Positions 31,339-35,600 of a stretch of DNA of 64,000 nt are shown piece by piece. The stretch's first letter is position 1; the number at the start of each line of letters is the position of its first letter. Source of the stretch: Dendrophyllia cribrosa. Its lineage: Eukaryota > Cnidaria > Anthozoa > Scleractinia > Dendrophylliidae. The notes below the pieces were generated by a model that worked only from the letters and a program-made list of their open reading frames with translations, had not been told where the DNA came from and did not search any database. The DNA lies in NCBI GenBank assembly GCA_024195265.1, contig JAJLRJ010000004.1, forward strand, positions 27,788,434-27,852,433, given 5' to 3'. The position numbers were made by a program, and so were the translations under genes.

Positions 31339-32670
31339 ATGGCGACGGAAAGCGAAATTGAGGAGCTTCAACTTGAATTGGAAGCGAAAGTTTGTGGTCT
31401 TGATGTCGATGCACTGGGACAGCTAGCAGAACACCTAACACTGGAAAAGGGAAAGCTAGGAAGGTTGCAGCTGTCGAAGCGAATCCGTGAGAAAATAGAG
31501 CTAGACGTGAGCGAAGAAGACGATAAGAAAACATTTCTGGTCGGCCTCCTTGCATTTGTGAAGGGGAAACCACCTCCGCTCGAAGATGACACAACAGGAA
31601 CGAAAGTGAAAGTTGAACCACCTACCCCGACAGAAAAAGCAGCCGAGAAAGCACAAGGCGAAGAAACGAAGGTAAATGTTGATGTTAGCAAGGTGCTTAG
31701 GCGGGAGTTTAAGATTCATGGTGTTGTGGCGGGAGATAACTTTAAGGACGGTCTGTCGTTTGTTAGTTTGGCGCGACAGATAGAATCTGGGACAAAGGCG
31801 GGCTATAAAGAGAGTGAAATTGTAGAAGCTGTTATTCGTGCAGTTAGTCCAAGCCTTCAACTGAGATCTTACTTAGAGATGATACAGGATCTATCGTTAT
31901 CTCGCTTAAGGCAGATTATGAAAGCTCATTTTAAGCAAAAGTCAGCAACGGAACTGTACCAGGAACTGTCTGTCTTACGCCAGGAAGCAAATGAATCTCC
32001 CCAAGGTTTTCTTGTGCGGGCTTTGAACTTAAAACAGCAGATTATTTTTGTGTCAAATGCCACTGATGATTCCATCAAGTATGAGCCCTCTCTTGTCCAA
32101 GCATTGTTCCTTCATGTAGTAGAGACAGGGTTACAAGATGAATCAGTTAGAGCTAAACTACGCCCTTTACTCGAAGTAGCTTCTGTAACTGATGAACAAC
32201 TTATGGAAAGGGTCAATCTGATTATGTCGGCAGAGACAGAACACCAGAATAAGATGGGTGTAGCTGGTAGGAAAGGGGCAAGGGTTAACCAGGTTGAAAC
32301 TGCCTCGCCTCTAAGTAACCAAACCCAGTCAAGTTCAAGTCCACCACCCCAGGCTGAGAGTAGCAAGTCCCAGAAAAAGGAGCCAAAACCCAATACTCTG
32401 GTGACAGCATTGGAAGCAGTGCAGTCAAATCTTGCCTCCCTGAAAGAATCCTTTGACAGAGTCAGCGCCCCAGTAGAGAGGAGTCCTTCCCGGCATTATG
32501 CATCTGGTAACTGGTCACAGTTTCAGCGGCGTCAGTGTAGTTCATGTAGGACAGCGGGTGCAGACAACTGTGATCATTGCTTTAAATGTGGCTCAACAGA
32601 TCATTTTGCTCGAGGATGTAGAAGGGTGTCGGGAAACGGGAGGAGGCTGCATCAGCGGGACAGGGTGTAG
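31339..32670 (+). CDS. gag: Gag protein of the Gypsy element
   Basis: 443 residues from ATG 31339 (MATESEIEELQ) to TAG at 32668-32670; the frame is open further upstream but this ATG follows a plausible leader. The N-terminus is a helical charged region, the middle a capsid-like helical domain (YLEMIQDLSLSRLRQIMKAH, then VLRQEANESPQGF), followed by a Ser/Pro/Gln linker and a Cys/His tail with one CCHC zinc knuckle, CFKCGSTDHFARGC, at residue ~414. Gag assembles the particle and binds element RNA. The -1 slippery site lies in its last 14 codons. Confidence 0.9.
   Translation: MATESEIEELQLELEAKVCGLDVDALGQLAEHLTLEKGKLGRLQLSKRIREKIELDVSEEDDKKTFLVGLLAFVKGKPPPLEDDTTGTKVKVEPPTPTEKAAEKAQGEETKVNVDVSKVLRREFKIHGVVAGDNFKDGLSFVSLARQIESGTKAGYKESEIVEAVIRAVSPSLQLRSYLEMIQDLSLSRLRQIMKAHFKQKSATELYQELSVLRQEANESPQGFLVRALNLKQQIIFVSNATDDSIKYEPSLVQALFLHVVETGLQDESVRAKLRPLLEVASVTDEQLMERVNLIMSAETEHQNKMGVAGRKGARVNQVETASPLSNQTQSSSSPPPQAESSKSQKKEPKPNTLVTALEAVQSNLASLKESFDRVSAPVERSPSRHYASGNWSQFQRRQCSSCRTAGADNCDHCFKCGSTDHFARGCRRVSGNGRRLHQRDRV
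32631..32637 (+). promoter_or_regulatory. -1 ribosomal frameshift site GGGAAAC between gag and pol
   Basis: In the gag frame the codons read TCG GGA AAC, so the heptamer is correctly phased as G GGA AAC, a canonical X XXY YYZ site (the same heptamer is known from simian retrovirus gag-pro). Gag terminates 31 bases later, while the -1 frame is open through the pol ORF, which has no ATG upstream of the MYND and protease regions. A possible downstream stem pairs GGGAC (32657-32661) with GTCCC (32684-32688). The slip is inferred, not shown. Confidence 0.8.
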
Positions 32671-35600
32671 TCGGAGCGAACTCGTCCCACCATGTCTGCA
32701 AGTTCTGTGGAAGCAAAGAGGGTACCTCCTCTTTTAAACAGTGCAGTAGTTGTAAAGCTGTCAGATATTGTTCAAGGAAATGTCAAGAGAAACACTGGAG
32801 ACAGCACAAGACACTTTGCCAGGCCATATCCACTTTGGAAGAGCGAAAGTACAGAGAAGACAGAGGAAAGACAGGAGTCTTTGTGAGCCATTTGTCACCA
32901 CAGGAGCATGCCCAGGTAGTTCGACTTGTGGGGCGTAAATGTACTGTCAAATGTTTGCTCAATGGTGTCGAGACTGATGCCCTCTGGGATACTGGAGCTC
33001 AAGTGTCAATTATTTCGCGTAGTTGGTTGAAGAGGTGTCTTCCAGGTTGTGACATTCGGGACATGACAGAGTTGTTAGGCATGGATGGGCTTGATTTAAA
33101 GGCAGCAAATGGAACTGACCTACCCTATGAGGGGTGGGTGGAACTGACTTTTAATCTTATTGAAGATAACTCTGACCATACTGTTAAAGTGCCGTTTTTG
33201 GTTGCCAAGGATTCCTTGGACATGCCTATTGTTGGATTTAATGTTATTGAAGAGTTTACTAAGTATTTTGAAGGAGATACTTTAGCTGGAGTTCATGGAT
33301 CGTTGGTGGATGTGCTCACTTCAAGTCTAACTGGTGCTGACCGAGTAAATGTAGAGGTCCTTGTTCAGCTCATCAAATCTGAGCCTGTAAAGGAATTGGC
33401 TACTGTAAAGTCAAGAAAGCAAGACACTGTAATCCCAAGGGGACAGTCAGTTGTTGTATCATGTCGTGCTGCAGTGGGTCCAGTCAGTAAGATACCTGTA
33501 CTATTTGAACTTGACCCTAACCAGTCTTGGCCTAGTGGTCTTGAAATACCTGGAACACAGGTGACTGTAGCAGGAGGCTCCACATTTCGGGTGAACATTC
33601 GAGTGGATAATCCAACAAAACATGACATTACTCTGAAAGGAAGGACAATTCTAGGACACCTCCAGCAAGTGAAGTCAGTCACCCCTCTTGAAGTGAAGTT
33701 AAAAGAAGAACTTTCAGCCAGTGTAAATGTAGTAGAATCTCAAATCGCTGATACGCCTGAGCCACGTGCTAACCAAGGTATTGACGTGAATTGCGAAGAA
33801 CAACCATGTAGTTACATTCCTGATATTGACACTGAAGAACTCACTGAGGAACAACGCCTCATCGTAAGAAAAATGCTGTTAGAAGAAGCAGAGTCATTCT
33901 CGAAAACTGATGATGATGTTGGAAGGGCAGAGGAGCTGCAAGTGGATATTAACCTCACTGATTCAGTACCAGTTCAGCGGAAGTACACTTCCATCCCCCA
34001 GCCACTCTATGCAGAAGTAAAGCAGTATGTTGAGGATCTGTTGAATCGAGGGTGGATTCAAAAGTCAAGGTCAGCTTATTCATCCCCTGTTGTATGTGTT
34101 CGGAAGAAAGATGGAACATTAAGACTGTGCATAGACTATAGACAGTTGAATTCCAAAACAGTTCGTGACAGCCACCCTTTGCCCAGAATGCAGGATGCCT
34201 TGGAAAGCCTAGGCGGAAATCAGTGGTTCTCCTTACTAGATCAAGGGAAGGCTTATCATCAAGGTTTTGTAAGTCCTGAAAGTAGACACAAAACAGCTTT
34301 TGCCACTCCTTGGGGATTGTATGAATGGGTTCGCCTACCAATGGGCTTGAAAAATGCGCCAGGAGAATTTCAACGCTTTATGGAACACTGCCTTGATGGT
34401 TTGAGGGATGATATTTGTATACCTTACATTGATGACATCATTGTATTTAGCCAAACATTTGAGGAACATGTTGACCATATTCGGAAAGTGCTCCGACGGT
34501 TACGTGAACATGGGGTTAAGCTTAAACCCAAGAAGTGCAGACTCTTTAAGCGAAAAGTTAACTATCTTGGACAGATTGTGTCAGCAGAAGGCTACAGACT
34601 AGACCCTTCCAATGTGGAAGCAGTTAGGACTCTGAAGGACAGTAAGCCTAGTACAGTTGGTGAAGTTAGAAAATTACTGGGTCTTGTCGGGTACTACCGG
34701 AGGTACATCCAAAATTTTGCCAAAATTGCGCACCCGCTATTTCAGTTATTGACCTCTGAAGATGTGACAAGAACATACAAGAACAAGCAACATCATGGTT
34801 CAGTACCATCGTCCCAACCGGTCATTTGGATGGAACAGCATCAAAAAGCAGTTGAAACCTTGTTAGACCACCTTGTAGCTCCTCCAATTCTTGGATATCC
34901 CGATTTTAGCAAGCCCTTTGTCCTGCATACTGACGCTTCGCAAGAGGGACTAGGAGCCGTGTTATATCAGAAACAGGATGCAAAGATGAGAGTAATTGGT
35001 TACGGCTCAAGGTCATTGACGAAGGCAGAGAAGAACTATAATCTCCATTCAGGGAAGCTCGAGTTTCTCGCTCTCAAGTGGGCTGTCTGTGAACACTTTA
35101 GAGACTACCTCTACCATGCGCCTGACTTTACTGTGTATACGGATAATAATCCCCTGACATATGTGCTGACGACTGCAAAGTTAAATGCTACTGGTCATCG
35201 TTGGGTGTCAGAGCTCGCAGACTTCTCATTTGCCATCAAGTACAGACCTGGACACGCCAACAAGGATGCTGATGCACTCTCAAGATTGCCAATGGATATT
35301 GATTCTTGCATGAAACTGTGTACTGTGAATGTGTCCGAGGGTGATATCAAGGCCTGTTGTGCGGCAGTAAGAGCATATGGACAAGGGGAGACAATCTGGG
35401 TGTCTGCAGTGAGCGATGATTCCAGCTTGTTGAACATGGAAGAAGTATCTCTTGGTTCTAGTGTGCATACGATTAGCAAGAATTCTGTTATTAATGCCCA
35501 GAAACAAGACCAAGTGATAGGAAGAGTACTCACATTCTTGAAAACAGGAAAATGGCCCAAGTCATGGGAGCTTAGACGTGAATTACCAGCCACAAAGGTA

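What the first reader, a model, noticed from the sequence alone, without database searches (positions are those of the whole stretch)
32631..32900. Gypsy element whose frameshifted Gag-Pol begins with a perfect MYND zinc finger
Between the gag CCHC knuckle and the protease DTG, the -1 frame encodes C-x2-C-x11-C-x2-C-x5-C-x3-C-x7-H-x3-C with the MYND words YCSRKCQ and HWRQHK. It is reached only through the phased slippery heptamer GGGAAAC, so only the Pol-containing minority of Gag would carry it. MYND fingers bind proline-rich motifs of chromatin and transcription proteins. A MYND module here could recruit a host factor to the reverse-transcription complex or steer integration. I know of chromodomains doing the latter in some Gypsy integrases, but not of MYND fingers in this place.
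Basis: partly seen in the sequence, partly recalled or inferred. Interest (0 to 1): 0.78.

Follow-up and report, generated by a model that had tools for sequence, protein, structure and literature searches.

The report
Gypsy retrotransposon clade with MYND finger
A coral-type jumping gene carries, at the start of the enzyme part made only when the ribosome slips frame, an intact MYND protein-docking finger, and the same finger sits at the same place in most of the relatives that could be checked, so it looks like an inherited working part and not an accident, although what it binds is unknown.

Summary
Observation confirmed. 32697-32819 encodes all eight MYND ligands (Pfam zf-MYND 44.3 bits, cut-off 22.7) in the -1 frame opened by a phased GGGAAAC at 32631-32637. 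The carrier is a Ty3/Gypsy copy, 30856-37848, with 162-bp LTRs and a TACT duplication. It is no one-copy oddity: in the window's own genome 66 of 74 related protease places have a MYND match directly upstream; the other eight are five fragments and three distant Gypsy elements that pass from gag knuckle to protease without a finger. By my grouping 8 of 10 families keep the phased GGGAAAC. Of 121 related Pol proteins 55 reach far enough upstream to judge; 52 show a whole or partial MYND. MYND and RT distances correlate (r 0.63). I read it as an ancestral docking module confined to Gag-Pol, most likely contacting a proline/leucine motif of a host nuclear protein; the partner is unproven, and the supporting Gln and Trp are common to MYND domains. 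Nine literature searches showed no description. New variant of a known kind: domain capture by an LTR retrotransposon.

The parts
30852..30855 (.). 5' target-site duplication TACT, inside a ~65-bp minisatellite
   Evidence: repeat array
30856..31017 (+). 5' LTR, 162 bp, TG...CA
   Evidence: 1 difference from the 3' LTR over 162
31020..31037 (+). putative primer binding site TGGCGACCCC...; tRNA not identified
   Evidence: sequence; role inferred from LTR retrotransposon anatomy
31339..32670 (+). gag (443 aa)
   Evidence: 264 homologues at E<=0.001, best 120 listed
32536..32619 (+). gag pre-knuckle C-x2-C-x7-C plus CCHC knuckle (CCHC 32578-32619)
   Evidence: Pfam zf-CCHC only 16 bits, below its cut-off 20.8
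32631..32637 (+). slippery heptamer GGGAAAC, phased for -1 frameshift
   Evidence: kept at this place in relatives
32697..32819 (+). MYND zinc finger (residues 23-63 counted from 32631)
   Evidence: Pfam PF01753 E 1.9e-11; relatives
32901..33350 (+). protease piece used as query; DTG at 32988-32996
   Evidence: gag-asp_proteas 21.9 bits, below its cut-off 28.2
34098..34577 (+). reverse transcriptase (RVT_1)
   Evidence: E 2.2e-34
34902..35225 (+). RNase H (RT_RNaseH)
   Evidence: E 6.4e-30
35685..36188 (+). integrase: H2C2 zinc module and rve core
36444..36446 (+). in-frame stop that interrupts pol in this copy (described only)
36456..37355 (+). further ORF in the pol frame, read as integrase C-terminal region and tail
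   Evidence: no Pfam family at E<=1, so no chromodomain match
37675..37684 (+). polypurine tract AGAGGGGGAG
   Evidence: sequence
37687..37848 (+). 3' LTR, 162 bp
37849..37852 (.). 3' target-site duplication TACT

Best explanation
The finger is an ancestral, inherited domain of one Ty3/Gypsy clade, placed between the nucleocapsid knuckle and the protease and encoded only in the -1 frame, so that only frameshifted Gag-Pol carries it. Shown: it is a canonical MYND sequence; it recurs at the same place in many families; its frame is opened by a conserved phased heptamer; its distances follow those of RT. Inferred: it folds as a two-zinc cross-brace and uses the peptide face around Gln52 and Trp56 (counted from 32631) to dock a short proline/leucine motif, so that only particles or complexes carrying RT and integrase recruit the partner. 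The partner is most likely a host nuclear or chromatin protein of the corepressor type, with a role in trafficking or in the choice of integration site.
For: Pfam zf-MYND 44.3 bits in the window and 37.6-43.9 bits in 7 of 7 further loci scanned, from six of my families. Own genome: 66 of 74 protease places have a MYND match directly 5'; 59 of those 66 MYND copies keep all eight ligands although many copies are decayed. Databases: 52 of 55 judgeable Pol proteins. Frameshift site kept in DNA (8 of 10 families) and in gag C-termini: 77 of 83 with a readable knuckle keep Gly-Asn there. dN/dS 0.18 for the window family against its nearest family. MYND-RT distance correlation r 0.63, 0 of 2000 permutations as high. 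With the short query the only solved structures at E<=1e-4 are DEAF-1 MYND; its corepressor-face Gln529 and Trp533 (PMC3555993, passages) align with window Q52 and W56. Q is kept in 48 of 48 and W in 45 of 48 related Pol proteins with a readable second half (4 of the 52 not readable). DEAF-1 MYND failed to bind DNA specifically (same passages).
Against: Q and W are general MYND residues, present in 21 and 19 of the 22 host MYND matches, so they do not prove peptide binding here. Family F8 has Arg for Trp, and P0032, P0036 and P0037 lack the Trp. P0084 and P0090 have no finger, and the only named fish copies (P0106, P0117) are degenerate, so it can be lost. No unusually stable RNA fold follows the heptamer (z 0.14; z -1.6 to 1.0 in nine loci of eight families; pseudoknots not modelled). 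F6 and F10 have an altered heptamer.
Confidence: 0.55

Rival explanations
1. Self-interaction: the finger on Gag-Pol binds a PPPL(E/D) motif in the element's own Gag and so sets how much Gag-Pol enters the particle.
For: Window Gag has PPPLE at residues 78-82, and many distant Gags keep PPPLE or PPPLD in an otherwise variable linker; F5 also has it. ETO MYND binds PPPLI of SMRT/NCoR (PMC3555993, passages).
Confidence: 0.12
2. Nucleic-acid or packaging finger: it extends the nucleocapsid zinc array on the RT-bearing species and helps RNA or primer handling.
For: It follows the CCHC after 26 codons and is rich in Lys and Arg by eye; one report, as cited in PMC3555993 (passages), suggests DNA binding by SMYD3 MYND.
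Against: DEAF-1 MYND failed to bind DNA specifically; peptide-face residues are kept. Not tested here.
Confidence: 0.15
3. Transframe pro-domain: a folded spacer that delays protease activation, like the transframe peptide of retroviruses (recalled); ligand binding is irrelevant.
For: Fixed place just before the protease: last Cys to DTG is 54-61 residues in 30 of 32 full proteins, 43 and 47 in the other two.
Against: Three distant Gypsy elements of the same genome show no finger in this place (L137-L139); a spacer would not need a peptide face.
Confidence: 0.15
4. Chance motif, or a host exon caught by one copy.
For: None found, beyond the presence of MYND matches outside the elements (22 of 88).
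Against: Recurrence in 66 own-genome places and 52 Pol proteins, low dN/dS, correlation with RT.
Confidence: 0.01

Closest known systems
Ty3/Gypsy LTR retrotransposons (Metaviridae)
   Same: LTRs, gag with CCHC, protease-RT-RNase H-integrase order
   Different: MYND between knuckle and protease; three distant Gypsy elements of the same genome show none there
Chromoviruses (Gypsy with a chromodomain after integrase; recalled)
   Same: a captured chromatin-type domain inside Pol
   Different: another domain at the other end of Pol; no chromodomain match in the tail
DEAF-1 and ETO (MTG8) MYND domains
   Same: DEAF-1 aligns over the Cys/His core with the Gln and Trp of the corepressor face
   Different: cellular transcription regulators; the partner of the retroelement finger is unknown
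PEG10 gag-pol frameshift (sushi-type Gypsy derivative)
   Same: same GGGAAAC heptamer with Gly-Asn at the site (PMC2800197, passages)
   Different: PEG10 has a described pseudoknot; no notable fold was found here; the passages read say nothing of MYND

Membership tests
Pfam zf-MYND | profile score above the gathering cut-off | tested here: met
   44.3 against 22.7 bits
Pfam zf-MYND | all eight zinc ligands with MYND spacing | tested here: met
   window; 59 of 66 own-genome retroelement copies
Pfam zf-MYND | zinc-bound cross-brace fold | not testable with these tools
   structure prediction switched off
Pfam zf-MYND | binding of PPPLI or PXLXP type peptides (shown for some members only) | not testable with these tools
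   contact Gln and Trp kept; binding not measured
Ty3/Gypsy (Metaviridae) | protease, RT, RNase H, integrase in this order | tested here: met
   RT, RNase H and integrase above Pfam cut-offs; protease by DTG and profile matches below the cut-offs
Ty3/Gypsy (Metaviridae) | LTRs and target-site duplication | tested here: met
Ty3/Gypsy (Metaviridae) | placement among named Gypsy clades by RT | not tested
   no named reference elements in the tree
Programmed -1 frameshift | phased X XXY YYZ heptamer in the gag/pol overlap | tested here: met
Programmed -1 frameshift | downstream stimulatory structure | tested here: inconclusive
   z 0.14, -1.6 to 1.0 in nine loci; pseudoknots not modelled
Programmed -1 frameshift | measured frameshifting | not testable with these tools
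   needs a reporter assay
Chromovirus | chromodomain after integrase | tested here: not met
   no Pfam match at E<=1 in 36456-37352

The most novel reading that the evidence does not exclude
A whole Gypsy clade of cnidarians and fish carries on Gag-Pol an ancient MYND tether, the functional counterpart of the chromodomain at the other end of Pol, which docks NCoR/SMRT-like corepressor or chromatin proteins and so brings RT-integrase complexes to chosen chromatin.
Probability: 0.25. Interest if true: 0.85.

Novelty: new variant of a known kind. Interest (0 to 1): 0.6.

Why it matters
LTR retrotransposons choose where to insert through docking contacts; chromodomains and the Pol III contacts of Ty3 are known cases (recalled; for Ty3 also titles and abstract starts in the listing). 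A second captured docking domain, encoded only with the enzymes behind a frameshift, would give a natural comparison within one genome: families with the finger, families with an altered finger or frameshift site, and finger-less Gypsy elements. It also predicts partners (proteins with proline/leucine motifs) that simple binding tests can check.

Tried and rejected
One-copy accident or chance motif: rejected. Gag PPPLE as the general ligand: considered; weakened because several MYND families show none. RNA stimulatory structure: not found by simple folding. IMG/VR scan for the MYND-protease piece: six pattern stretches, none confirmed. Label-clustering test on the RT tree: no power, since only two rows lack the finger. 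RT search of the own genome: the tool stayed busy, so a tree of own-genome RT with MYND state was not made. dN/dS: 4 of 45 family pairs gave a finite dS (ratios 0.17, 0.18, 0.18, 0.41); the other 41 are saturated. The host of the window is inferred to be a coral from the nearest named protein (Oculina patagonica); not confirmed. No search for an env gene was made beyond the ORF list and the Pfam scan of gag, pol and tail.
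Full report
Observation. The window holds one Ty3/Gypsy copy at 30856-37848, inside a minisatellite of about 65-bp units, with 162-bp LTRs that differ at one site, TACT duplications, gag, and a pol frame with protease, RT, RNase H and integrase. Its pieces match no other place in the window. From the phased GGGAAAC at 32631 the -1 frame encodes a MYND finger at 32697-32819; Pfam gives E 1.9e-11 over the whole profile. The pol frame is closed upstream at 32619-32621, gag ends at 32668-32670, and there is no Met in the pol frame before the protease DTG. 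So the finger belongs to Gag-Pol alone, unless splicing joins it otherwise. Pol of this copy is interrupted at 36444-36446. The seven own-genome copies at 99% identity or more in this stretch have open frames of 371-1274 residues; the database protein P0005, 97% identical in RT and 1507 residues long, starts after the finger.

Is it inherited? In the own genome (627 Mb, 22 contigs) the MYND query gives 88 matches and the protease query 80, which I merged to 74 places; the tool calls such counts lower bounds. 66 of 74 have a MYND match directly upstream on the same strand (gap up to 250 nt). Of the other eight, five are truncated or decayed pieces (L132-L136) and three (L137-L139, 30-36% identical in protease) are distant Gypsy elements whose CCHC starts 164-203 nt before the protease match, in the frame that gag has here, with no finger between. 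The 22 MYND matches not beside a protease show no knuckle or DTG and look like host genes. By eye the 66 copies fall into about ten families (my grouping). Eight of ten have the phased GGGAAAC in at least one copy. One search counts GGGAAAC in 50 of 66 under a strict open-frame rule; L008 and L009 also have it but were counted there under a second, downstream heptamer; L061 has GGGAAAT. Of the 13 without, L033 and L057 have the heptamer but a broken frame, six belong to family F10 (GTTAAAC in five, a rearranged site in L063), and L024, L032, L060, L062 and L070 are changed or partial. Seven fetched loci from six families all pass the Pfam MYND cut-off.

Wider relatives. A search with residues 440-900 found 6349 proteins and listed the best 120. 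Of these plus the window (121), 66 cannot be judged (39 without a recognised protease start, 27 whose ORF begins less than 60 residues before it); 32 have a full and 20 a partial or degenerate finger; 3 have none. Of those three, P0059 begins at what looks by eye like the finger's last ligands and may not count; P0084 and P0090 lack it, and P0090 runs gag and protease in one frame. The 32 full ones were picked by a ligand pattern, so their ligand identity is by construction; Tyr46 and Gln52 (32 of 32 each) and Trp56 (94%) are not part of that pattern. The RT tree (quick method, 117 rows, midpoint root, long-branch warnings) has finger-bearing rows throughout the 110-row clade; P0084 and P0090 lie in a 33-row group (SH-aLRT 96) with 16 of them, outside a 28-row subgroup that holds those 16, which suggests loss but depends on the root. 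MYND and RT distances of the 32 correlate at r 0.63, 0 of 2000 permutations as high, which speaks against repeated capture. Among the 52 finger-bearing proteins the only host names are Oculina patagonica (P0002) and the fish Metynnis hypsauchen (P0106 and P0117, alike and degenerate: first CxxC incomplete and the His replaced). The fish part therefore rests on degenerate named copies and on intact unnamed ones in the same branch.

Frameshift in relatives from gag. Of 120 listed gag homologues (264 found), 83 have a readable CCHC; 77 of 83 keep Gly-Asn shortly after it (2-12 residues between), as GGA AAC would give, and the median tail from knuckle to stop is 16 residues. The six exceptions are P0126, P0144, P0165, P0196, P0222 and P0240. 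The 37 without a readable knuckle were not counted; several show the same tail. PEG10 uses the same heptamer and Gly-Asn (PMC2800197, passages).

Selection. NG86 over 41-42 codons gives dN/dS 0.18 between the window family and its nearest family; 41 of 45 family pairs are saturated at synonymous sites and the other three finite values are 0.17, 0.18 and 0.41. The representatives of F2 and F6 are decayed copies. 59 of 66 own-genome copies keep all eight ligands.

Mechanism. The short query finds only DEAF-1 MYND among solved structures at E<=1e-4; the longer query finds 34 sequences at E<=0.001 with SMYD3 first. The DEAF-1 contacts named in PMC3555993 (passages only) are Met512, Glu514, Thr516, Gln529 and Trp533; by their spacing these face Phe, Gln, Ser, Gln and Trp of the window on the printed alignment. 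The same passages say that binding modes differ among MYND domains. This fits a peptide-docking finger, but Gln and Trp are common MYND residues (21 and 19 of the 22 host matches). I commit to docking of a host nuclear partner by Gag-Pol as most likely, with self-binding to Gag, nucleic-acid binding and a transframe pro-domain as rivals.

Literature. Nine full-text searches: seven paired MYND with retrotransposon, Gypsy, gag, reverse transcriptase or Repbase terms (in one search only two of five terms were needed, and no listed paper held the MYND term), one was on MYND peptide binding and one on the heptamer. I saw the listings and, for six of the papers with MYND and transposon terms, the MYND passages: PMC12350819, PMC3562529, PMC3532108, PMC2644716, PMC8613185 and PMC4469406; these concern host genes or Pfam counts, not a domain of an element. 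The remaining listed papers were not opened. Repbase Reports and most subscription journals are not in the library. Pfam labels on database proteins already show the combination, so it is unremarked more than unseen.

What changed on checking.

Noticed in passing
window 31570-31584 (Gag residues 78-82): PPPLE motif in Gag, kept in many distant Gags within a variable linker but absent in others.
   Followed up: partly
window 32536-32580: Gag has a further C-x2-C-x7-C-x-H stretch just before the CCHC knuckle; the pattern is present in 80 of 83 Gags with a readable knuckle.
   Followed up: partly
L050-L052, L064, L067: One family (F10) keeps the MYND frame but has GTTAAAC in place of GGGAAAC, so its gag-pol switch may work differently.
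   Followed up: partly
P0090: Related protein with gag and protease in one frame, no MYND, and a coiled-coil-like stretch (by eye) instead.
   Followed up: no
L016 / G000:C3:20064424-20064711: This MYND match lies in an open frame of 3278 residues, far longer than pol; fusion or tandem not examined.
   Followed up: no
window 38983-39519: ORF of 178 aa that looks by eye like a non-LTR reverse transcriptase fragment.
   Followed up: no
window about 28024-30851 and after 37849: Minisatellite of 63-65 bp units into which the element is inserted.
   Followed up: no
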